Positions 95 to 12,314 of a stretch of 12,314 nucleotides of DNA are shown piece by piece. The stretch comes from JBFLYE01 sp040756715 [NCBI: bacterium] (GTDB lineage Bacteria > UBA9089 > UBA9088), in contig JBFLYE010000014.1 of assembly GCA_040756715.1 (NCBI GenBank), positions 1 to 12,314 on the forward strand, given 5' to 3'. The first letter of the stretch is position 1; every line of letters begins with the position of its first letter. A program made the translations under genes and the position numbers. Under the pieces are notes generated by a model. That model saw only the letters and a program-made list of their open reading frames with translations. It was not told the DNA's origin and ran no database searches.

Positions 95-112
95 AATTTT
101 GAATTCAAAATT
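95..112. repeat. Perfect 18-bp palindrome downstream of nrnA
   Basis: The sequence AATTTTGAATTCAAAATT is its own reverse complement and is centred on GAATTC at 101-106. It overlaps the left end of the heptad repeat just beyond the nrnA stop. As RNA it could fold back weakly, but it is pure AT apart from one G and one C, has no loop and no following U-run on the minus strand, so it is a poor intrinsic terminator. It may be a by-product of the repeat running into its own complement. Confidence 0.45.
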
Positions 113-128
113 CAACATTCAAAATTCA
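102..128 (-). repeat. 27-bp heptad repeat, copy A, supplying the nrnA stop
   Basis: This 27-bp stretch is identical, base for base, to 1585-1611. Read on the minus strand it is built of 7-bp units TGAATTT, TGAATGT, TGAATTT and a partial TGAATT. Four TGA triplets fall at 126-128, 119-121, 112-114 and 105-107, so the 7-bp period puts a stop in every minus-strand frame. The first TGA is the nrnA stop codon. Heptanucleotide dispersed repeats are known in cyanobacteria (STRR elements); membership in such a family here is only an analogy. Confidence 0.8.
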
Positions 129-1058
129 TAATTTTATGAGGCATGACATTATCTTTTCTTCTGCCTCGTCTATGGGAAGAGAAAGAATACAACCAGCGGC
201 ACAGAGGTGACCACCGCCACCAAAGAGAACTGCTATACTCCTTACATCAAGACCTTCTTTTGACCTTAAAGAAACCTTTGTCCTGGAAGGAGAAAGCTCC
301 CTGAATAAAAGAATGACTCTGCTATCCTTTATCCCTCTCATCAGATCAAGCAATGTGCCTGTTTCTGGTTCTCTATTAGCCTCCTTTATCATCTTTTCTG
401 TAATCCTTGCTGAAACAATAGAACCATTCATTTTAAGATTAGATAATGCCTTTCCAAAGAGCCTTAATTCGTCTAAACTCTTTGTGCTATAAAGCTTTTC
501 TTTTATTTCGGATGGCTCTATTCCATATTCAAGGAGACTTGCACATATTCTTAAAGCACTAGGCGTTGTGTTTCTGAAGCTAAAAAACCCTGTATCGGTT
601 GCTATACCAACATATAGAAGAAGGGCTATATCTTTGTTTGGTTTTTTTGAAAGCCCTATTAAAAGCCTATAGATCATCTCACAGACAGATGATGCCTTCT
701 CATCTATCCAATTTACATTTCCTATACCACCTCCAAGGTGATGGTCAATATTTATCTTTAAAGGGATTCTTTCAATTATTTTTTTTGTCCTAACCCCTAG
801 CCTTTCTATCTCATTTACATCAAGAATTAAGGCTACATCTTTTCTATTATCATCGGGTGGTAATATTTCCGAAAGATGGGGGAGGAAGGAGAAATGAGGC
901 GGTGGATTATCCTCATTTATAATTATAACCCTTTTCCCCAAACCTTTAAGGATAAGAAAAAGGGATATCTGGCTTCCAATTGAGTCTCCATCTGGACGGA
1001 TATGGGATGTTATAATAAAATTATCCCTCTCTTGTAAGACCTTTAAAACTTCATTCAT
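126..1058 (-). CDS. nrnA: NrnA-type DHH/DHHA1 phosphoesterase (nanoRNase / pAp phosphatase)
   Basis: This is a cytoplasmic DHH-family phosphoesterase. The family degrades 2-5 nt RNA fragments to mononucleotides and dephosphorylates 3'-phosphoadenosine 5'-phosphate, using two Mn ions. In 310-residue numbering the metal-binding motifs are intact: S-H-I-R-P-D-G-D-S near 18-26, D-V-N near 80-82, D-H-H at 105-107 and A-T-D-T-G near 153-157. The C-terminal DHHA1 domain has G-G-G-G-H at 280-284 followed by C-A-A-G. Length is normal. I chose the ATG at 1058, which overlaps the rbfA stop by 8 nt; an in-frame TTG three codons upstream (1067) is also possible, and neither has a strong Shine-Dalgarno. 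The stop codon is the first TGA of the heptad repeat. The rbfA-nrnA pairing is common in bacteria; the usual truB partner is not seen in the remaining 125 bases. Confidence 0.93.
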   Translation of the reverse strand: MNEVLKVLQERDNFIITSHIRPDGDSIGSQISLFLILKGLGKRVIIINEDNPPPHFSFLPHLSEILPPDDNRKDVALILDVNEIERLGVRTKKIIERIPLKINIDHHLGGGIGNVNWIDEKASSVCEMIYRLLIGLSKKPNKDIALLLYVGIATDTGFFSFRNTTPSALRICASLLEYGIEPSEIKEKLYSTKSLDELRLFGKALSNLKMNGSIVSARITEKMIKEANREPETGTLLDLMRGIKDSRVILLFRELSPSRTKVSLRSKEGLDVRSIAVLFGGGGHLCAAGCILSLPIDEAEEKIMSCLIKL

Positions 1059-2925: not shown

Positions 2926-3678
2926 ATGCAAAAGGCAAAATTATATGGATTTGTTATTTTACTTTTAGCTTTTTTTTCTTATGCTTTAGATTTTAAAAAG
3001 GGGGAGGTTTTGGTAAAGACAAAAGATAGGGAGGTAATTACTTCAATCGGTGAAGGGTTTGGGCTTTTATCTTATGAGAGGCTTTATGAAGAGAAAGATG
3101 GCTCTGTTTTCCTGCTTAAATTTCCCCCTGATAGTGATATTAAAGAGATTATTGCCTCATACAAAGACAACGAAAATGTTGTATATGCAGAGCCGAATTA
3201 TCTCAGCGCTATAGCAACAAAAAATGAAGAAAAAGAGACCCCTTTAACCTTTCAAGATGAGCCAGGCATATTAGAGGTTCAAGAGATGGCAATAAGGTAT
3301 AATAATCTTTCACCTTCTGTGGTAAAATCCTGGCAGAAAAGGGCAAAATACAAGGTGCTTCTTCCCGAACTTTCTTTTAGCTATGGAAACTATGTAGCTT
3401 ATGGCAAAGAGGGACCAGACCAGTGGAGCCTTTCTTTTGATTGGCATCTTAGTGAGCTTATTTACAACCCTGATCAAACCTCAATTGATGAGCGATCAAG
3501 GCTTATGACACGCTTAAGAAATGAAATTCTTGCCGAGCTTACAAAGCTATATTTTGAAAGAAAGAGGCTTATTTTAGAAGACAAAGAGAAAAATAGGATA
3601 AGAATAGAAGAGCTAACCGGCCTAATTGATGGATATACCGGAGGGGCGTTTTCAAAAAAAATTATTGACAAAAGATAA
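2926..3678 (+). CDS. Secreted protein: subtilase-prodomain-like domain fused to an unnamed domain, no protease
   Basis: The 250 residues start with a Sec signal peptide (hydrophobic 8-19, likely cut after S-Y-A at 20). Residues 24-95 look like the N-terminal prodomain of subtilisin-like proteases: K-G-E-V-L-V-K near 25-31, a central V-F-L-L-K-F strand, a helix with I-I-A-S-Y, then V-V-Y-A-E-P-N-Y near 85-92. No Asp/His/Ser catalytic domain follows. Instead residues 117-215 have a pattern I recall from uncharacterised secreted proteins: V-K-S-W-Q-K-R-A-K-Y-K-V-L-L-P-E-L-S, then W-S-L-S-F-D-W-H-L-S-E-L-I-Y, then D-Q-T-S-I-D-E-R-S-R-L-M and a charged helix rich in Arg/Glu. It may be periplasmic or outer-membrane linked. 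The start is 8 nt after tRNA-Lys with no Shine-Dalgarno; the signal peptide supports this ATG. Function unknown; a role as protease inhibitor or chaperone is speculation. Confidence 0.82.
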   Translation: MQKAKLYGFVILLLAFFSYALDFKKGEVLVKTKDREVITSIGEGFGLLSYERLYEEKDGSVFLLKFPPDSDIKEIIASYKDNENVVYAEPNYLSAIATKNEEKETPLTFQDEPGILEVQEMAIRYNNLSPSVVKSWQKRAKYKVLLPELSFSYGNYVAYGKEGPDQWSLSFDWHLSELIYNPDQTSIDERSRLMTRLRNEILAELTKLYFERKRLILEDKEKNRIRIEELTGLIDGYTGGAFSKKIIDKR

Positions 3679-3709: not shown

Positions 3710-6700
3710 ATGAAAAAATTATTATGGGTAGGAATTTTTGCTGCCAGCCAGCTCTTTGCTGCAACAGAAACAATAACCACATACTCGGATAAAAGTTTTA
3801 AAAATCCATCCTCTTACTTTAAGGATGGAGCAACTATATATGTAGCCGCAAGGGTTGAAAATGCAAGTGGATCTTATTGCATCGGAACTGTAAAAAGCTT
3901 ATTCCCTCCGGTAAAGCCTTGGCCACCAGAAGCAAATAGCGTCCCCAATCAAATGGAAATACCCTTTGTTGATTTTGATGGTGATGGAACATATAGCGCA
4001 AGCTTTGTAATAAAATCAACCGATGAGCCTAATTCCCTATTTGTCTTTGATGGTGCGGGAGTAGAAATTAGTGTTGATATAGATGGAGTTGATACAGGAA
4101 AGCAAATAATCATTGCCGATTATCAAGCACCCTTGGGGGGTCTCAATGTTTCTGATTATCGGTTTTCTCCTTATACATCGCCCAATTCAGAGGATACAAC
4201 AACAATTACTCTAAGTTGCGAAGAAGCTGGCAGATATAGAATTGCTATGGAGGGAAAGGAACTAAAAACAGGGACCATAGCCGCAAATATACCCCTAGAT
4301 TTTGTCTGGGATGGCTATTATTGGGATAAGCAGGTAGGAGCCTGGCTTTCCTTTGAGGAAGGAAGCCATATATTGGATGTTTCAATATTTGATCTTGCAG
4401 GGAATGAAGGTACAAAAACCGAGAAAATTACCATAGATAGCACAAGCCCAATTATTCAGGTTTGGGCAGACCCCCTATTCTTTTCTCCGGGAACATCTAC
4501 GGGCAGTGGAGATTATTGTTCTCTTTTCTTCTCTTCAAATGAATCGGGAAGGTATGAGGTTTCCATAGACAATAAGACTCCCTCAGGGGAATATTCAGGG
4601 GAGCTTTTTAATTATTCTGGAATCTATACATGGGATGGCTCTTACACAACACAACCGGCAGATGAAGGAACCCATTCTGTAGAGGTTGTGATATGGGATA
4701 CAGCAGGAAACTATAGAGAAAAAACTATTGTTGTAACCATTGATAACACACCACCCTTAATCACCTCCCTTACCGAGAATACAGGGGGTGAGGTTTTTTA
4801 TCTTAATGAGGTAATCCAGTTCACAATGAAGGCAAGGGATTGGATGGGAAACCAGGAGATAGATGCTGATGATGGATTAAAGGCAATAGCCAATATCAAT
4901 GGAAAGGATATAAAGCTTACCTATCTTGGTGAGGGATTGGGAACAGAGGGAAGCATATATCAAGGATATTATACAGTTTCAGAACAAGACTACGGAACAT
5001 GGACAATTTCTGGATATTTTATGGACAAAGCAGAAAATCCAGCCACAAATTATGGGACGATAAGTGGAACAATTAGTGTAAATGGAAGAAGGGAAAGACC
5101 AGTGAAGCGATCAAGGATTTCAAGGGTAAGTCTTTTATATCCAAAAGAGATAAGGCCATCTTTATCAGGCCTTACAATTATAGGCTCAACAACAGATTCT
5201 CTATCCATTAAATGGGAAGGTGAAAGCCTGGAAGAAGGGCAAAGAATAAAGGTAATTGAAGAGGAAAGAAAGCATATCTGGGTGGGAACTTTTACGAATT
5301 CTCTGCTTTCTCTTAACAATGGGCTTCTTTACTATGGAGAGCCTATTTCTGATTATAGAAATGTAAAAATAGGGGTTGCTTATGCCTTAAAGAAAGCCTT
5401 GAAAGTCAATGATGAGCTAATTCTATCCCTTGAAGGATGTGTCCTTCTTGACGAGCTAATTTTTAGCCCGCCAAATGTTAGCTCAACAAGCCTAACCATT
5501 CAAAATAGTAAGATAAACATCGGCGATTATATCCTTGTCTCTGATAATGTAAGAACCTGGATGTCAACGGCAACCGATAATGGTTCATTTACCATATCCA
5601 ATTCAAATCTTTATTCAGGACCAATTATTTCTGATTATACCGAGCTTACTAATCTTGTGGCAAGAAGGGTAGCTAAGGCAACCGGTGGTGATGCAACGAT
5701 TGATATTGGAGAGATAAGGCCAAATATTCCCCTATCCGATGACGGCGTTGACGGGGTTGGGATTTTATCCGGTGATATTACCGGAGGCGATGGGATATAT
5801 TCTGGGGTCTATACCATTAAGGAGGGTGACACCACAGATGATGCACAAATTCTTGGACACTTTTTCTATAACAAAAAGAGGGCAGAGAATGATCCATATA
5901 TTGACGAAAGGCTAAAGGTAACCATTGATGCAACACCACCAGAGATTACCAATAACAATATCTTCCCTACCCCATTTAATCCCTGCCTTCCCTACCCTAA
6001 GAATCTTGCGATAATGTTTAATCTTTCAGAAAAGTCCTATATTGTAATCACCATTAAAAATAGTAAAGGTGAGGTAGTAAGGGTTCTAAAATCTCCCAAG
6101 GCAGAATTTGGAGATAATGTTACCATATTTTGGGATGGAAGGACAAGTGCAGGCGACATACCACCCGATGACCATTATTCTTATACAATTGAGGCAGAGG
6201 ATGAGGCGGGAAATAAGGCAATTCCTAAAATGGGAGAGATTGTGCTCACCACTATAGAGATAAAGGTAGAAGACCTTAATATTTCACCCAACCCATTCTG
6301 GCCAGACAAGGCTAAACCAGAGACAATTGATGTGGTTATAAATTTTAGGATTATCCTTAAGAATTTAAGGGGAGGGACGGTAACCGATGAGCAACTTAAT
6401 AACTTAGGCTTTGATTTTATTCAGGGTTGGAATTGGCTTGACGCACCCTATGCCTTAATCGACCTCCAACTCTATGATGAGGATGGAGAAAGAATAGAAT
6501 TGAAAAGTTATCCTGACTCCTGTGATAAAACAGATAGCGATCCCTGGCTTAGACCTGATATTCTTCCAAACTATGGAGATTATAAGTATTCCCTGGGAGA
6601 CCCTGCAAAACCTGACAAAGGCGATGATGATACCAAAAATGACTTTAATTACTTTGTTCCCTTCTATAAAGATTTAGATGGGAACTATTACAAAAACTTT

Positions 6701-9700
6701 AGCTTTGGGATGAAGGACTGGGACGATGCAAAAGGTCAGTATATCTTTAGGATCGGGGCAGACCTTACCAGCATTTACTGGAAGCTTATCAACAAACCAG
6801 AAGACCCAGAGGAAAAGTGGCATGCAATTCCCTATTTTTTTGACCACAATGGGCTTAAGGCAGATTATATTGAGGGAAAGGTTTTGGCACAGCCTTCACC
6901 CCCGCCTCCCCCTTCTGATGATGAAAAACCCCTTATTATCGCAACCCAGCCTGCAGAGCAAGATGTAATCTCACAAGGGACAATTTCAAAAGTATGGGCA
7001 AAACTTATTGATATGCCAACCGAGGGAGGCTCTGGGATAGACTTTGAAAGGAGTGAAATCTTCCTTGCCGATTCATTTGACCAGAAAATAGGAGGCAAAA
7101 AGATTAATGATGGCATTGATACAATATATTGGATACTTGATAATCCATTGGATAATTCAAAGCCTGGCTCATATACCATAAAGATAAGACCGGTTGATAG
7201 AGAGGGAAATGGTGTTTTAGATGACTACCAGAGGGCGACATTTCAGATAAAGGATATAATGAAGCCCGATGTCTTTAATCCCTGGCCAACCGGGGTAGTT
7301 ATTTCACCCTTTGAAGATGTTATTTATTGCTTTATCTCAGATGTAGGCTTGGGCAATTCTGGCATAGATTCTTTAAAAACAACAATGTCTATGAAAAAAG
7401 AAAAGGCTGCATTTACCCTTGTCCAAAGCTATAGCCCAACCGGAAAGAACTCGGGAAAGCTGATGGGAGACCTTGGTTTTCCATTATTAGATGATGGATT
7501 ATGGGATGGAACATATACAGTATCTGTAAAGGCTTATGATGGTGCGGGAAATTACAATCTTTATCAATGGAGCTTTTATCTTAAGACAATTGTTCCCAAG
7601 ATATATGATGCTTATCCTGTAGGATCTATCCTTAAGCCATATCAGGGAACTATAAGCGCAGGAATATCTGAACTTGAGGAGGATGCCTCAGGGATAGATT
7701 GGCAAAGGTCAATAATCACCCTAAAAGACCCAGATAATAATTTAATTCCTCTAAATATTACCTTCCAATATGGAACATCCAGCAATATAGGGTTTCTTAT
7801 CGGAAGCCCTATCTTAGGCTCTTTAACCAAAGAGGGGCTTTATACCTTTGTGGTATATGCCTATGATAAAGCAGAGCATTGTTCAATAGGAACCTACACA
7901 TTTGAGTTAAGGGAGCTTATTACCGCAAGGATAAAGTTTTTCTCTGTTTCTGATAATAGGTTTTCTCCAGGTAGCTCTACCGGCAGTGAAGATACAATCG
8001 AGATTAGCTTCTTAATTATGGATAAGGATGGAAGCTGGACACTTTTTGCCGATAATGCAACCCTTACTACAGGGTTTTTAAAGAAGGATGAATTAGGGTC
8101 ATATATATGGGCTCCTGGTGGGACCGCCTTTGAAGGTTCGCATACAATTACATTAGAGGTTATTGATCCTGACACACAAAGGAGAGAAACCCAAACCATA
8201 TCTGTATATGTTGATAATACACCACCCGAGGTTATAAGCATTATAGATAATACAGGCCAAAGAACATTCTATAGGGGTGAAAAGGTTGTCTTTATCCTAG
8301 AGGTAAGGGGAACGGATACAGATGTTATTAGTGCAGGCTGTGTACTTCGTGATAATATCTTTGTTCCCCTTAATAAAATAAGCGAAACTAAATGGCAGGG
8401 CGAATATACCGTAAAAGAGCAAGATAAAGGCGACTTTAATGTTAAAGGCTTTGTGATGGATTCTGCAGGAAATGGCGGAACATCTACTAATGTCTTTGGC
8501 ACAATAACCCTTGATGGAACAAAAGCAAATCCCATTACTCTATCAAGGATAGCAAGGCTGGGAATAATTCCAGAAAGGAAAGAGGAAAGGGCTTTATCGG
8601 GCTTGACCATTATAGACTCTACAACCGAGACATTAAGGGTTAAATGGCAGGATGAAATAGGTTTAATGGAAGGAGAAAGGATAGAGATTACCTCAGGTAA
8701 TTATATCTGGATTACAACCCTTAAAAACCAAGAGGCTCTTATTTCAAATGCAGAGCTATATTATGGTTTGCCCATTTCAGATTATCGAAGCATTACACCC
8801 CAAGCAGGCTATTCCTTAAAGAGCCTCTTAAAGGAGGGTGATAAACTCATCATCTCTCTTGCAAGCTTTAAGGTAGAAAAAACCATAAGGGCAATTTCCA
8901 CAAAAACAACAACAAACATTACCATTACAAGCCCTGAGATAAAATGGGGAAGATATATCCTTGTTTCTGATAGTATGCATACCTGGTTTTTGCAAGCAAA
9001 GGAGAATGGAAGCTGTACCATTTCAAATCAAAATTTATATTCTGGCCCTCTTGTCTCTTCCTATAATACCATTTCAAACCTTGTGGTAGAAGAGGTTAAT
9101 TGGGCAACCGGTGGTGATGCCTCAGCTGATTTAGGGGTTATGTATCAAGGCATCCAGCTTGTAGATAATGGAATGTCTTCATTCTTCGATAAGATGCCAG
9201 GTGACGGCATTTATTCAAGTGTTTATGAGATAAAGGAGGGAAATATCGGCACAGGGGTTTTAATACAAGGACACTTCATTTATAATAATTATAATGCCCT
9301 AAATGACCCATATATCGATGAGAGGATAAAGATTGATGTAGATGGAACAAAGCCCGAAATTAAAAATCAAAATATAGAACCCAATCCATTCAATCCCTAC
9401 ATTCAAAATCTTTCTATAAAATATAACCTTTCAGAGAAAAGCCGTGTTCAAATAAATATCCTGAATGAAGATGGAGGGGTTGTAAAGAGGATTATCTCTC
9501 CAAATCCAAAATATGGAGAGAATACCTCTGATTTCTGGGATGGAAGGGATAATAATGGGGATATAGTCCCTGATGGAACTTATTATTATACCATTGATGC
9601 AAGGGATATGGCAGGAAATGAGGCTACTAAAGTAAAGGGTGAGATAAAGGTAACCTCCATTGAGATAAAGATAGAAAACCTTACCTTCTCTCCAAACCCA

Positions 9701-12004
9701 TTCTATTCAGATGATATTCCTGAAAGCTGTGATGTCTTAGTAAAATTCAGGGCTGTCCTTAAGAGCTCAAAAGGTGGTGAGGTAACCGATAAGCAACTTA
9801 ATAACCTAGGCTTTGATTTTGTCCAATATTCTACTCACCTTAACATCCCTTATGGCCTGCTTAATTTTGAAACCCATAATGATGAAGGGGAGAAGATTCC
9901 CCATACAAGCTACCCTGATATGACTGCAGGAAATGATATAGATCCCTGGCTATATAGCTTAAGGGATGGAAAATGGGTATGGGGGGTTCCCCCAAACTAT
10001 GGAAATTATACGATGTCTTTAGGAAACCCTGTAAAACCTGATAAGGGCGATGAGGATACCGAGAATGATCAGGGAACCCTTGTTCCCTTCCTTAAGGATG
10101 AAGAGGGAAATTACTATTGTGACTATGAATATGGGGAGCTTGATTGGAAAAATCCACCGGGTAATTATTATGTCCGGATATGGGCAGAGCTTGTAAGTAT
10201 AGATTGGGAGCTTACCAATAAGGAGGAGGAAGAAGAGGAGAAATGGCATGCAGAACCTCGCTACCATGGGCATTATAAGCTTCGCTCAGATGTAGTTGAT
10301 GGAATAATGAGATGCGTGGAGAACCCTGAGATTATAAAACAAGATAAAACCCCTCCCATTGTAATTAGTTCCAATCCTACATCAGGTGAGGAAAAGGAGA
10401 TAGGTATAGTTTCCTCTGTTTGGGTAAAATTATATGATGGAGAAGGAGGCGTAGGTGTCTCTCCGATAAACTCAAGTATATATCTTGAAGATAAATTGGG
10501 CGAAAAGATAGGGGGTATTCTCACAAATGACAATAAAGATACCCTATATTGGATACTTACAAAGCCATTAACCATCCCTGGAACTTATACAATTAAAATC
10601 ACTGCCGTAGATTTTAACAATAATAAAGCCACTTATTCTATAACCTTTGGGGTAATTGATTCCATTCCTCCCATAATTTCAGACCCATACCCCACGGGAA
10701 CGGTTACTGCCCCATTTTCTGGTGCGATTAAAGTTAATATTTCAGAGATAGGTTGTGGTGAGTCTGGGATAAATTGGGCAAGTTCAACCATATCATTAAA
10801 GAAAGATGGGCTAGACATTCCTTCAACCAAATCCTATACAGAGACAGGAAGCAATACAGGACAGCTAAAAGGAAATCTTATTTCTCCCTTAACCGAATCA
10901 GGCACATATACAATCACTGCAATTGCCTATGATAATAAAGGAAATTTTGCCCAGGAAACATTTTACTTTAGCATTCCAAAGGAGATAGAGGTGATCTACA
11001 ACGACGAGATATATCTTAATATCCCTTATGACACAGAGATTACCTTGGATAAGGCTCCTGGTATTCCTGTGGGGACAAATACAGTTTTTGTAAGGCTTTT
11101 CCCTGATACCAGAGATCATAAGGAATATGAGCTCATTGGCTCAATTACCAAATTTTACTATGGCACACAAACCCCTCTTTATAAATGCAAATTTAGCAAG
11201 GATGTAACTTTGACCCTCCATTATAAGGATTATCATCTTCCATCCCCTTTCTTCAAGGAAGAAAAATTACTTATCTATGGAAGTGGAAGTTTGTGGACAA
11301 GGCTTGGTGGAACAATTGATCCAGCAAATAACAAAATTAGCCTTAAAATTCCAGCCAATACAGAAATAAAGGATATGTATGCAATTATGTATGATGAGGA
11401 TGATTTACCAAATATTGATCACACACCACCCCCTGTTGCATTTGTAAATGAACCAATAAATATTAAGGCAGTAATCTATGATGAAGGGGTTGGGCTTAAC
11501 TTTGCAGAGATAATTCTTTATTATCAGCCCCTTGGTTCGCAAACCATAGGAACAAAAAGCTATGAGAGTATCTTGGGAACAAATACATTTGTTTTCAATA
11601 TCCCACCCCAAAATAAATGCACCCTAAATTATTGGATCTCTGCATCTGATAACAATGGGAATGTAAGAAGTGCGACATATCAAATAAATGTAGTAACAAA
11701 AGAGGAGGCATCTATTGAAAAATCTGTTTATACCTCTCCAAACCCAGCAAAGGGCTCTACAAAATTCAATTTCTTTTTAGAAACAAATGCAAATGTTAAG
11801 ATTAAGCTCTATACCATTACCGGAGACCTTGTCTGGGATTATGAGGAAGATTTTTCAGAGGGAGGAAAGAAGGAGAAAGATTACAATTGCACAAACAAGG
11901 ATGGAAAGAAATTAGGAACTGGGCTTTATATCTATAAGGTAACCATAGAATACCCAACAAAGAGAGAGAGGGTAATAAAGAAGATGGTTATTATAAAGCA
12001 ATAA
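3710..12004 (+). CDS. Giant secreted Ig-like/FlgD-like repeat protein with FlgD/T9SS-type C-terminus
   Basis: A 2764-residue exported protein. A signal peptide (M-K-K-L-L-W-V-G-I-F, cut near A17) is followed by an N-terminal beta region with an acidic D-F-D-G-D-G-T-Y segment and an F-S-P-type Ig-like module at about 152. Two long tandem copies of one module series follow (about 258-1405 and 1418-2424). Each holds: an F-S-P-G-x-S-T-G-S module; a D-N-T-P-P Ig-like module; a double S-D-Y module; a FlgD-like Ig module with P-x-P-F-N-P and W-D-G-R; a roughly 210-residue unrecognised module; and Ig-like modules ending in A-Y-D-x-x-G-N. A unique region (about 2425-2670) and a C-terminal domain with S-P-N-P, G-x-Y-I-Y-K and K-K-M-V-I-I-K complete it. 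That domain resembles type A T9SS sorting domains and FlgD Ig domains. No enzymatic motif is seen; surface adhesion or cell-envelope scaffolding is inferred. The gene ends in tandem TAA stops. Confidence 0.9.
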   Translation: MKKLLWVGIFAASQLFAATETITTYSDKSFKNPSSYFKDGATIYVAARVENASGSYCIGTVKSLFPPVKPWPPEANSVPNQMEIPFVDFDGDGTYSASFVIKSTDEPNSLFVFDGAGVEISVDIDGVDTGKQIIIADYQAPLGGLNVSDYRFSPYTSPNSEDTTTITLSCEEAGRYRIAMEGKELKTGTIAANIPLDFVWDGYYWDKQVGAWLSFEEGSHILDVSIFDLAGNEGTKTEKITIDSTSPIIQVWADPLFFSPGTSTGSGDYCSLFFSSNESGRYEVSIDNKTPSGEYSGELFNYSGIYTWDGSYTTQPADEGTHSVEVVIWDTAGNYREKTIVVTIDNTPPLITSLTENTGGEVFYLNEVIQFTMKARDWMGNQEIDADDGLKAIANINGKDIKLTYLGEGLGTEGSIYQGYYTVSEQDYGTWTISGYFMDKAENPATNYGTISGTISVNGRRERPVKRSRISRVSLLYPKEIRPSLSGLTIIGSTTDSLSIKWEGESLEEGQRIKVIEEERKHIWVGTFTNSLLSLNNGLLYYGEPISDYRNVKIGVAYALKKALKVNDELILSLEGCVLLDELIFSPPNVSSTSLTIQNSKINIGDYILVSDNVRTWMSTATDNGSFTISNSNLYSGPIISDYTELTNLVARRVAKATGGDATIDIGEIRPNIPLSDDGVDGVGILSGDITGGDGIYSGVYTIKEGDTTDDAQILGHFFYNKKRAENDPYIDERLKVTIDATPPEITNNNIFPTPFNPCLPYPKNLAIMFNLSEKSYIVITIKNSKGEVVRVLKSPKAEFGDNVTIFWDGRTSAGDIPPDDHYSYTIEAEDEAGNKAIPKMGEIVLTTIEIKVEDLNISPNPFWPDKAKPETIDVVINFRIILKNLRGGTVTDEQLNNLGFDFIQGWNWLDAPYALIDLQLYDEDGERIELKSYPDSCDKTDSDPWLRPDILPNYGDYKYSLGDPAKPDKGDDDTKNDFNYFVPFYKDLDGNYYKNFSFGMKDWDDAKGQYIFRIGADLTSIYWKLINKPEDPEEKWHAIPYFFDHNGLKADYIEGKVLAQPSPPPPPSDDEKPLIIATQPAEQDVISQGTISKVWAKLIDMPTEGGSGIDFERSEIFLADSFDQKIGGKKINDGIDTIYWILDNPLDNSKPGSYTIKIRPVDREGNGVLDDYQRATFQIKDIMKPDVFNPWPTGVVISPFEDVIYCFISDVGLGNSGIDSLKTTMSMKKEKAAFTLVQSYSPTGKNSGKLMGDLGFPLLDDGLWDGTYTVSVKAYDGAGNYNLYQWSFYLKTIVPKIYDAYPVGSILKPYQGTISAGISELEEDASGIDWQRSIITLKDPDNNLIPLNITFQYGTSSNIGFLIGSPILGSLTKEGLYTFVVYAYDKAEHCSIGTYTFELRELITARIKFFSVSDNRFSPGSSTGSEDTIEISFLIMDKDGSWTLFADNATLTTGFLKKDELGSYIWAPGGTAFEGSHTITLEVIDPDTQRRETQTISVYVDNTPPEVISIIDNTGQRTFYRGEKVVFILEVRGTDTDVISAGCVLRDNIFVPLNKISETKWQGEYTVKEQDKGDFNVKGFVMDSAGNGGTSTNVFGTITLDGTKANPITLSRIARLGIIPERKEERALSGLTIIDSTTETLRVKWQDEIGLMEGERIEITSGNYIWITTLKNQEALISNAELYYGLPISDYRSITPQAGYSLKSLLKEGDKLIISLASFKVEKTIRAISTKTTTNITITSPEIKWGRYILVSDSMHTWFLQAKENGSCTISNQNLYSGPLVSSYNTISNLVVEEVNWATGGDASADLGVMYQGIQLVDNGMSSFFDKMPGDGIYSSVYEIKEGNIGTGVLIQGHFIYNNYNALNDPYIDERIKIDVDGTKPEIKNQNIEPNPFNPYIQNLSIKYNLSEKSRVQINILNEDGGVVKRIISPNPKYGENTSDFWDGRDNNGDIVPDGTYYYTIDARDMAGNEATKVKGEIKVTSIEIKIENLTFSPNPFYSDDIPESCDVLVKFRAVLKSSKGGEVTDKQLNNLGFDFVQYSTHLNIPYGLLNFETHNDEGEKIPHTSYPDMTAGNDIDPWLYSLRDGKWVWGVPPNYGNYTMSLGNPVKPDKGDEDTENDQGTLVPFLKDEEGNYYCDYEYGELDWKNPPGNYYVRIWAELVSIDWELTNKEEEEEEKWHAEPRYHGHYKLRSDVVDGIMRCVENPEIIKQDKTPPIVISSNPTSGEEKEIGIVSSVWVKLYDGEGGVGVSPINSSIYLEDKLGEKIGGILTNDNKDTLYWILTKPLTIPGTYTIKITAVDFNNNKATYSITFGVIDSIPPIISDPYPTGTVTAPFSGAIKVNISEIGCGESGINWASSTISLKKDGLDIPSTKSYTETGSNTGQLKGNLISPLTESGTYTITAIAYDNKGNFAQETFYFSIPKEIEVIYNDEIYLNIPYDTEITLDKAPGIPVGTNTVFVRLFPDTRDHKEYELIGSITKFYYGTQTPLYKCKFSKDVTLTLHYKDYHLPSPFFKEEKLLIYGSGSLWTRLGGTIDPANNKISLKIPANTEIKDMYAIMYDEDDLPNIDHTPPPVAFVNEPINIKAVIYDEGVGLNFAEIILYYQPLGSQTIGTKSYESILGTNTFVFNIPPQNKCTLNYWISASDNNGNVRSATYQINVVTKEEASIEKSVYTSPNPAKGSTKFNFFLETNANVKIKLYTITGDLVWDYEEDFSEGGKKEKDYNCTNKDGKKLGTGLYIYKVTIEYPTKRERVIKKMVIIKQ
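4481..7920 (+). repeat. Long intragenic duplication, copy 1 (about residues 258-1405)
   Basis: This copy runs from F-S-P-G-T-S-T-G-S-G to the end of a third Ig-like unit. It aligns throughout by eye with 7961-10980; matches include L-S-G-L-T-I-I-x-S-T-T, Y-I-D-E-R, L-N-N-L-G-F-D-F, K-P-D-K-G-D and E-K-W-H-A. It carries two things that copy 2 lacks: a proline-rich linker (S-P-P-P-P-P-S, about residues 1061-1067) and one additional Ig-like unit at about 7590-7920. Divergence at many positions makes an assembly artefact unlikely. Confidence 0.85.
6254..6880 (+). other. Unrecognised ~210-residue module, copy 1
   Basis: Starting at I-E-I-K-V-E-D-L and S-P-N-P-F-W, the module contains L-N-N-L-G-F-D-F-I-Q, an N-Y-G-D-Y segment, S-L-G-D-P-A-K-P-D-K-G-D-D-D-T, V-P-F-Y-K-D, G-N-Y-Y, D-W, R-I-G-A-D-L-T-S-I-Y-W and E-E-K-W-H-A-I-P. 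It is rich in Asp and aromatic residues. I cannot assign it to a known family; the Asp cluster could bind calcium (inference). Its second copy is at 9659-10305. Confidence 0.65.
7961..10980 (+). repeat. Long intragenic duplication, copy 2 (about residues 1418-2424)
   Basis: The copy begins with F-S-P-G-S-S-T-G-S-E and repeats the module order of copy 1. It ends after one Ig-like unit starting I-P-P-I-I-S-D-P-Y-P-T-G. It has a run of six or seven Glu (E-E-E-E-E-E-K-W-H-A) just before the conserved W-H-A, where copy 1 has a P-E-D-P-E-E segment. Key structural positions are conserved while surface loops differ, as expected for an old in-frame duplication under purifying selection on fold. Confidence 0.85.
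9659..10305 (+). other. Unrecognised ~215-residue module, copy 2
   Basis: The counterpart of 6254-6880. Shared landmarks are S-P-N-P-F, G-G-x-V-T-D-x-Q-L-N-N-L-G-F-D-F, S-Y-P-D, D-P-W-L, N-Y-G-x-Y, S-L-G-x-P-x-K-P-D-K-G-D-x-D-T, V-P-F-x-K-D, G-N-Y-Y, R-I-x-A-x-L-x-S-I-x-W-x-L and E-K-W-H-A-x-P. These are more densely conserved than the Ig-like modules around them, suggesting a specific function such as ligand or metal binding. Confidence 0.65.
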
Positions 12005-12008
12005 TAAA

Positions 12009-12314
12009 ATGAAAGAGCCATTAAGGTATTTAAATAATGCAAAGAAAATCTTAAAAAATGCTCCTCGTGAGGACAATTACTATACCGATGTTAAATATGT
12101 CCAGGAGGCTTGTGGCACTGCCTATCTTGCGGTATTAAAGGCTATTGATACATATTTATTAAAGAAAGGAGATGAAAAAAAATTACCGAAATCTGTAAAT
12201 AGCTATAGGGAAATGTTGCGAAAGCATCTTACAATTCATAATGGGAAGATATTAAAAAGTTTTGAATTTTTATATAAAGAGTTACACATAGCAGGTTATT
12301 ATAGAGGACTTCTT
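12009..12314 (+). CDS. DUF5618/HEPN-like small protein, cut by window end
   Basis: The first 102 codons of a gene running off the window. It reads P-L-R-Y-L-N-N-A-K-K-I-L, then Y-Y-T-D-V-K-Y-V-Q-E-A-C-G-T-A-Y-L-A-V-L-K-A-I-D, then S-V-N-S-Y-R-E-M-L and H-I-A-G-Y-Y-R-G. This fits the DUF5618 pattern: an all-alpha, HEPN-like small protein of about 110-130 residues, so little is probably missing. Its function is not established; HEPN-like proteins often pair with nucleotidyltransferase-like partners in toxin-antitoxin pairs, but no partner is visible. It begins 4 nt after the giant gene's stop with no Shine-Dalgarno, so translational coupling is likely. Confidence is good for a real gene, moderate for the family. 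Confidence 0.75.
   Translation, partial: MKEPLRYLNNAKKILKNAPREDNYYTDVKYVQEACGTAYLAVLKAIDTYLLKKGDEKKLPKSVNSYREMLRKHLTIHNGKILKSFEFLYKELHIAGYYRGLL

What the first reader, a model, noticed from the sequence alone, without database searches (positions are those of the whole stretch)
6254..6880. Candidate undescribed ~210-residue domain, present twice
The two copies (here and at 9659-10305) keep long strings of identical residues, notably L-N-N-L-G-F-D-F, K-P-D-K-G-D-x-D-T-x-N-D, V-P-F-x-K-D, and E-K-W-H-A, while flanking Ig-like modules have diverged more. I recognise no family. Conserved Asp and aromatic positions hint at calcium or carbohydrate binding.
Basis: partly seen in the sequence, partly recalled or inferred. 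Interest (0 to 1): 0.72.

Follow-up and report, generated by a model that had tools for sequence, protein, structure and literature searches.

The report
Undescribed domain in giant surface protein
A very large secreted-type bacterial protein carries two copies of a protein module that no tested family library describes; the same module turns up in 25 genomes from three bacterial phyla, keeps six Asp or Asn residues unchanged that could bind calcium, and is usually encoded next to an outer-membrane barrel protein.

Summary
Residues 842-1060 and 1977-2203 of one 2764-aa protein are homologous (51% identity) and all four quoted motifs are present. One correction: they lie inside a ~1,000-residue internal duplication, and the two modules just upstream are as conserved (51.6%, 51.8%; domain 50.5%), so the domain is not unusually conserved. 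The outer Ig-like modules are more diverged (35-43%).

Pfam, NCBIfam, PHROGs and PDB sequences gave only chance-level matches or none. It is a real family: 29 copies in 25 genomes of three phyla (15 of 19, 9 of 45 and 1 of 2 genomes searched). In 26 of 29 copies the WDG landmark of FlgD_ig precedes it at a fixed distance. A PorV/UPF0164-type barrel gene lies downstream, at most one small ORF away, in 21 of 22 genomes where this could be checked. Ten columns are invariant in all 29 copies; six are Asp/Asn (P about 0.002).

AlphaFold2 (pLDDT 64 and 68) gives an Ig-like sandwich with a poorly modelled acidic insert. Best reading: a calcium-stiffened Ig-like module of a surface stalk; calcium is inferred, not shown. 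The genome has no hit for the T9SS PorU-type peptidase or SprA_N, so the export route is open.

The parts
3710..12004 (+). Gene for a 2764-aa multi-domain protein; signal-peptide-like N-terminus (by eye)
   Evidence: ORF; Pfam Big_13, FlgD_ig and CHU_C hits
6233..6889 (+). Novel domain, copy 1 (residues 842-1060)
   Evidence: HMM of the family (built with this copy in it), residues 842-1056, E 9.5e-75; alignments
9638..10318 (+). Novel domain, copy 2 (residues 1977-2203)
   Evidence: HMM of the family (built with this copy in it), residues 1977-2198, E 2.2e-72; 51% identical to copy 1
6515..6643 (+). Acidic insert of copy 1, D936 to D978, holding all six invariant Asp/Asn
   Evidence: 29 of 29 copies keep D936, D942, D944, D972, N977, D978
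9917..10069 (+). Acidic insert of copy 2, D2070 to D2120
   Evidence: Same alignment columns
5975..6232 (+). FlgD_ig module directly before copy 1 (residues 756-841)
   Evidence: Pfam PF13860 on the whole protein, two stretches; WDG 35 residues before the domain; alignment
9389..9637 (+). FlgD_ig module directly before copy 2 (residues 1894-1976)
   Evidence: Pfam PF13860, best stretch 1900-1965
5690..5974 (+). 'GDGIY' module before FlgD_ig, copy 1 (residues 661-755)
   Evidence: 51.6% identical between copies; GDGIY 150 residues before the domain
9116..9388 (+). 'GDGIY' module, copy 2 (residues 1803-1893)
4481..7600 (+). Internal duplication, unit 1 (residues 258-1297)
   Evidence: 446 of 996 aligned pairs identical
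7961..10981 (+). Internal duplication, unit 2 (residues 1418-2424)
11738..11983 (+). C-terminal sorting-type tail (residues 2677-2758)
   Evidence: NCBIfam TIGR04183, 25.0 bits against cut-off 23; Pfam PF18962 24.2 bits, below its cut-off 27
12009..12314 (+). Start of a gene cut by the contig end; it resembles the DUF5618 gene that lies between the giant gene and the barrel gene in genome G001
   Evidence: ORF; the G001 gene hits PF18498 at E 7.9e-37; the window ORF itself was not scanned, similarity judged by eye

Best explanation
The region encodes an undescribed ~215-residue domain. Shown: it is a coherent family; every one of 29 copies has at least one of two FlgD_ig landmarks (WDG, DxAGN) at a set distance before it; it lies in one large protein per genome, usually ending in a FlgD/sorting-type tail and usually encoded before a PorV/UPF0164-type outer-membrane barrel. 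Predicted, with moderate confidence: an Ig-like beta-sandwich core. Inferred: the insert with D936-x5-D942-x-D944 and D972-x4-N977-D978 (43 and 51 residues in the two copies) folds around one or more calcium ions, stiffening or shaping the module. Also inferred: the protein is exported through the outer membrane, is held there by its tail with help from the partner barrel, and works as an extracellular stalk or adhesin whose head varies between genomes (subtilase in G001 and G003). The two copies come from an old duplication and have been kept.
For: Family and spread: 15 of 19, 9 of 45 and 1 of 2 genomes of three phyla. Invariants: 10 columns in 29 of 29 copies, 6 of them D/N against a 15.4% background, P 0.0016. 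Architecture: WDG 34-37 residues before the domain in 26 of 29 copies, DxAGN in 26 of 29, each copy having at least one. Barrel gene downstream in 21 of 22 testable genomes; of these 21 barrels 15 match Pfam PorV and 11 UPF0164 at E<=0.01. Tail over the NCBIfam cut-off. Ig-like core in two models, with VIA Z up to 9.3 over 116 residues, rmsd 2.8. Second copies from families f1 and f2 group together (support 0.949), so the duplication is old.
Against: No metal binding was tested, and the acidic insert is modelled at pLDDT below 50 over most of its length, so no pocket can be shown. Foldseek gave no PDB match at E<=0.001 for either model, and Z of 7-9 may be only a common beta arrangement. Asp/Asn can be invariant for turns or for catalysis. 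H1038 and P1041 (28 of 29) are not explained by calcium stiffening. Own genome has no Peptidase_C25 or SprA_N hit, so a T9SS-like route is doubtful. In genome G004 the next gene is not the barrel. In the window's own genome the closest barrel (83% identical to G001's) follows a different tail-bearing protein on another contig. The barrel profile was built from these neighbours themselves, picked by length and last residues, so only the Pfam check is independent, and at E<=0.01 not every match passes Pfam's own cut-off.
Confidence: 0.55

Rival explanations
1. It is a ligand-binding (for example glycan-binding) or catalytic domain, and the invariant Asp/Asn with H1038 and Y1011 form the site; the Ig-like core is only a scaffold.
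For: Invariance in 29 of 29 copies across three phyla, at 22% mean identity between the two larger ones, is more than a stalk spacer needs. H1038 and P1041 are kept in 28 of 29. Weak fold look-alikes include the Wzt carbohydrate-binding domain (Z 7.2) and biofilm protein RbmA (Z 7.9).
Against: No library or PDB-sequence match to an enzyme or carbohydrate-binding family. The Trp of EKWHA is absent in the two out-of-phylum copies. Two copies in a stalk fit a structural or binding role better than a catalytic one (inference).
Confidence: 0.22
2. It is an extreme member of a known Ig-like family (FlgD_ig, Big_x or a sorting-tail Ig) swollen by insertions, which profile methods miss.
For: Most copies near the window's begin with a PNPF-type stretch like the tails and FlgD_ig modules (alignment, by eye); the core models as an Ig-like sandwich.
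Against: hmmscan finds no Ig family in 10 diverse members at E<=0.1; profile-profile comparison with the family's own FlgD_ig modules gives probability 2.7 over 22 columns.
Confidence: 0.2
3. It is an export or docking module recognised by the adjacent barrel protein, which would explain the joint inheritance of domain and barrel.
For: 21 of 22 testable genomes pair the gene with a barrel.
Against: Other tail-bearing proteins lie next to PorV-like barrels in the own genome without this domain: only the two window copies are found there, yet a tail-bearing ORF lies upstream, on the same strand with at most two ORFs between, of 6 of 14 barrel loci. The tail is thus the likelier link.
Confidence: 0.08

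Closest known systems
FlgD_ig (Pfam PF13860) and sorting-tail Ig modules (PF18962, TIGR04183)
   Same: Same protein, FlgD_ig directly adjacent; probably the same broad Ig-like sandwich class
   Different: No profile match; about 215 instead of about 80 residues; the acidic insert with six invariant Asp/Asn has no counterpart in the family's own FlgD_ig modules
Bacteroidota T9SS substrates with the PorV shuttle (PMC5562754, abstract read)
   Same: Large protein with a type-A-like C-terminal tail; PorV-type barrel genes present
   Different: Own genome has no hit for Peptidase_C25 (PorU type) or SprA_N; 14 PorV-like barrel loci in one genome, several beside tail-bearing proteins
Bacterial multi-Ig surface proteins (Big_13, Big_3 and similar)
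   Same: Chains of Ig-like modules in one very long protein
   Different: This domain matches none of the described Ig families
Structural look-alikes only: a subunit of Integrator (INTS7, name recalled), GH2 enzymes' Ig-like domain (recalled as such), RbmA
   Same: Core of about 104-119 residues superposes at Z 7.7-9.3
   Different: No sequence relation (6-17% identity); at these Z values possibly only a common arrangement

Membership tests
FlgD_ig (PF13860) | Profile match of the domain itself | tested here: not met
   0 FlgD_ig hits in 2 copies at E<=10 and in 10 diverse members at E<=0.1; hhalign probability 2.7
Any Pfam, NCBIfam or PHROGs family | Match over the curated cut-off | tested here: not met
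   Best were chance-level: SMI1_KNR4 E 0.7, SpoIIID E 0.074 in 1 of 10; none in NCBIfam for 2 copies or PHROGs for 19 members
Immunoglobulin-like fold | Greek-key beta-sandwich of the Ig type | tested here: inconclusive
   AF2 pLDDT 63.5 and 68.4, pTM 0.64 and 0.68; Foldseek none at E<=0.001; VIA Z up to 9.3
Calcium-binding domain | Conserved cluster of acidic side chains | tested here: met
   Six Asp/Asn invariant in 29 of 29 copies; that they lie together in space is not shown
Calcium-binding domain | Bound calcium | not testable with these tools
   Needs a structure or a binding assay
T9SS substrate | Type A sorting tail at the C-terminus | tested here: met
   TIGR04183 25.0 bits against cut-off 23; the Pfam tail model is below its cut-off, 24.2 against 27
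T9SS substrate | T9SS core machinery in the genome (PorU-type C25 peptidase, SprA) | tested here: not met
   PF01364 and PF14349: no match in the own genome, 96% complete; across the phylum 9 of 19 and 7 of 19 genomes match at E<=0.001 (SprA_N over its cut-off in 2), so SprA_N is a weak detector here
PorV/UPF0164 barrel family (partner gene) | Profile match | tested here: met
   PorV 15 of 21 and UPF0164 11 of 21 members at E<=0.01; best E 1.8e-13 and 3.2e-8

The most novel reading that the evidence does not exclude
The domain is a metal-dependent ligand-binding or adhesion domain that marks one ancient, vertically kept surface machine shared by three poorly known phyla: a giant stalk with exchangeable heads, exported and anchored through its tail by a dedicated PorV-like barrel, without the T9SS sortase or SprA channel.
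Probability: 0.15. Interest if true: 0.65.

Novelty: new variant of a known kind. Interest (0 to 1): 0.38.

Why it matters
If right, it adds a well-defined family (signature: L-x-F ... P ... D-x5-D-x-D ... D-x4-N-D ... G-x-Y ... L ... H-x-x-P) to surface proteins that library scans see only as Ig-like chains. It also gives a marker for a giant-protein and PorV-barrel gene pair, and raises a testable question: do PorV-like barrels anchor tail-bearing proteins where PorU and SprA are not detected?

Tried and rejected
Duplicated-domain-only view: rejected, because the duplication spans about 1,000 residues (a first self-comparison table printed no rows). Special conservation against neighbours: rejected for the two modules directly upstream; between the two larger phyla the domain is even less conserved overall (22% mean identity) than FlgD_ig (30%) and the module before it (29%), on the 28 copies that passed a length filter (1 of 29 dropped). 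Phage, plasmid or viral origin: no match. Disorder throughout: rejected for the core, open for the insert. FlgD_ig homology: not found. Naming the phylum: not achieved. Paper searches for UBA9088 (0 papers), Yessentuki (3 papers listed; one passage of PMC11708057 seen) and DeMMO4 (1 paper listed) gave no classification; the named records are only 'bacterium' MAGs. The first genome-contig scan found nothing. A barrel test in the own genome showed 14 barrel-like loci: 6 with a significant tail-bearing ORF upstream on the same strand with at most two ORFs between, C153 with a tail hit away from the end of the ORF, C35 with only a look-alike ending, and 6 with none. PDB folds not listed by the fold searches are not excluded by them. 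Literature on the domain itself: no paper search can target an unnamed domain; I ran UPF0164/PorV and FlgD/T9SS/candidate-phylum searches, saw the listings, and read the abstract and section list of PMC5562754.
Full report
What is there. The window is a whole contig (G000:C14). It holds, on the minus strand, a DHH-family gene (126-1067) and a phoH-like gene (1617-2591). On the plus strand it holds a 250-aa ORF (2926-3678) with a fervidolysin-type prodomain, the 2764-aa ORF 3710-12004, and a cut ORF at 12009-12314. Pfam finds Ig-like families and FlgD_ig in the large protein; NCBIfam finds a type A sorting tail just over its cut-off (25.0 against 23 bits).

Check of the observation. The two copies are in one frame and 51% identical over the domain. 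A shuffle control gives 588 against a maximum of 70 in 500. But the copies are part of a longer duplication (residues 258-1297 and 1418-2424; 446 of 996 pairs identical). The 'GDGIY' module and FlgD_ig just before the domain are as conserved as the domain (51.6%, 51.8%, 50.5%), and 243 of 778 equal blocks reach the domain's identity. A tree of 28 of the 29 copies groups the second copies of WIN, G001, G003 and G002 with the single copy on G004's cut contig (support 0.949), so the duplication predates the split of families f1 and f2 and both copies have been kept since; the grouping of the first copies is poorly supported (0.39-0.52 at the deeper nodes).

Is it a known family? No NCBIfam match for either copy; Pfam only at chance level (E 0.7 for copy 2; E 0.074 in 1 of 10 diverse members); none in PHROGs in 19 members. 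PDB sequences gave none with the single copy at E<=10 and two chance-level ones with the profile (best E 0.48).

Spread. With the family profile: 15 of 19 genomes of the own phylum, 18 of 386 in a broad sample (15 own phylum plus G082, G353 and G288), 9 of 45 in the phylum of G082 and G353 and 1 of 2 in that of G288. Two further, overlapping broad samples with a wider profile, 3 of 386 and 10 of 384, found only genomes already known to carry it. Together 25 genomes carry it. I saw no genome with more than one such protein: where two copies occur they are in one ORF, except G002, where they lie on two contigs whose ORFs are cut by the contig ends. Phages, plasmids and viral contigs gave none.

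Anatomy. Across 29 copies from 26 sequences (the window and 25 loci) L899, P913, D936, D942, D944, D972, N977, D978, Y1011 and L1019 are invariant; L896, F901, P953, H1038 and P1041 are kept in 28 (G012's copy is cut by a contig end before H1038). Six of ten invariant columns are Asp/Asn against a background of 15.4% (binomial P 0.0016; columns treated as independent). WDG of FlgD_ig lies 34-37 residues before the domain in 26 of 29 copies, and DxAGN close before it in 26 of 29; each copy has at least one. Foldseek finds nothing at E<=0.001. The tool's own note says that middling values may reflect only a common arrangement.

Genome context. Of 25 genomes with the domain, 22 show what follows the gene. 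In 21 a PorV/UPF0164-type barrel gene follows on the same strand: 18 with a gap of at most about 720 bases in which I saw no ORF of 120 aa or more, 3 with one small ORF between (G001, G014, G015). G004 is the exception. G012 and G018 are cut within the gene. The window is cut in the next gene; the barrel nearest to G001's (83% identity) lies on contig C10 behind another tail-bearing protein and two small ORFs that look like DUF5618, so the arrangement in this genome may differ. The barrel assignment used a profile built from these neighbours and was checked against Pfam: PorV in 15 of 21, UPF0164 in 11 of 21 at E<=0.01. The heads of the large proteins differ: a subtilase in G001 and G003, a sub-threshold C39-like stretch in G017 (22.4 bits against 24).

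How it most likely works. Shown: domain family, architecture, gene pairing. Inferred from PorV in Porphyromonas (PMC5562754, abstract: PorV delivers T9SS substrates to the attachment complex): tail-bearing proteins may be handled by the neighbouring barrel. Against full T9SS membership, the own genome shows no PorU-type peptidase and no SprA_N, though the genome is 96% complete and SprA_N is only weakly detected across this phylum (7 of 19 at E<=0.001, 2 over the cut-off). Inferred: the acidic insert binds calcium and stiffens the module. The strongest rival is a ligand site made of the same residues.

Verdict. This is a genuine undescribed domain with a clean signature, in an otherwise familiar class of giant Ig-rich surface proteins. 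Interest is modest, because function remains inferred and the fold is probably a variant of a very common one.

Noticed in passing
window 2926-3678: A 250-aa ORF with a fervidolysin-type protease prodomain and no protease domain found. ORFs before the giant gene in G001 and G002 share an 'LYFERK' stretch with it by eye (not scanned), while in G001 and G003 the giant protein itself carries prodomain plus subtilase. The own genome has two subtilase loci on other contigs.
   Followed up: partly
G000, 14 loci (L105-L118): The own genome has 14 PorV-like barrel loci though no PorU-type peptidase or SprA_N hit; 6 of 14 have a tail-bearing ORF upstream with at most two ORFs between, suggesting protein-barrel pairs.
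   Followed up: partly
window 12009-12314; L105 1445-2192: Small ORFs resembling DUF5618 (only G001's copy was scanned) sit between tail-bearing proteins and the barrel, in tandem on contig C10.
   Followed up: no
window 102-133, 1585-1660: Seven-base tandem repeats (AATTCAA, TTTTGAC) beside the DHH and phoH genes.
   Followed up: no
window about 5327-5650 (residues about 540-646): A sub-repeat seen by eye before the GDGIY module: 'LYYGEPISDY' and 'LYSGPIISDY' stretches about 90 residues apart.
   Followed up: no
L039 (G004): The only testable genome where the barrel does not follow the domain-bearing gene.
   Followed up: no
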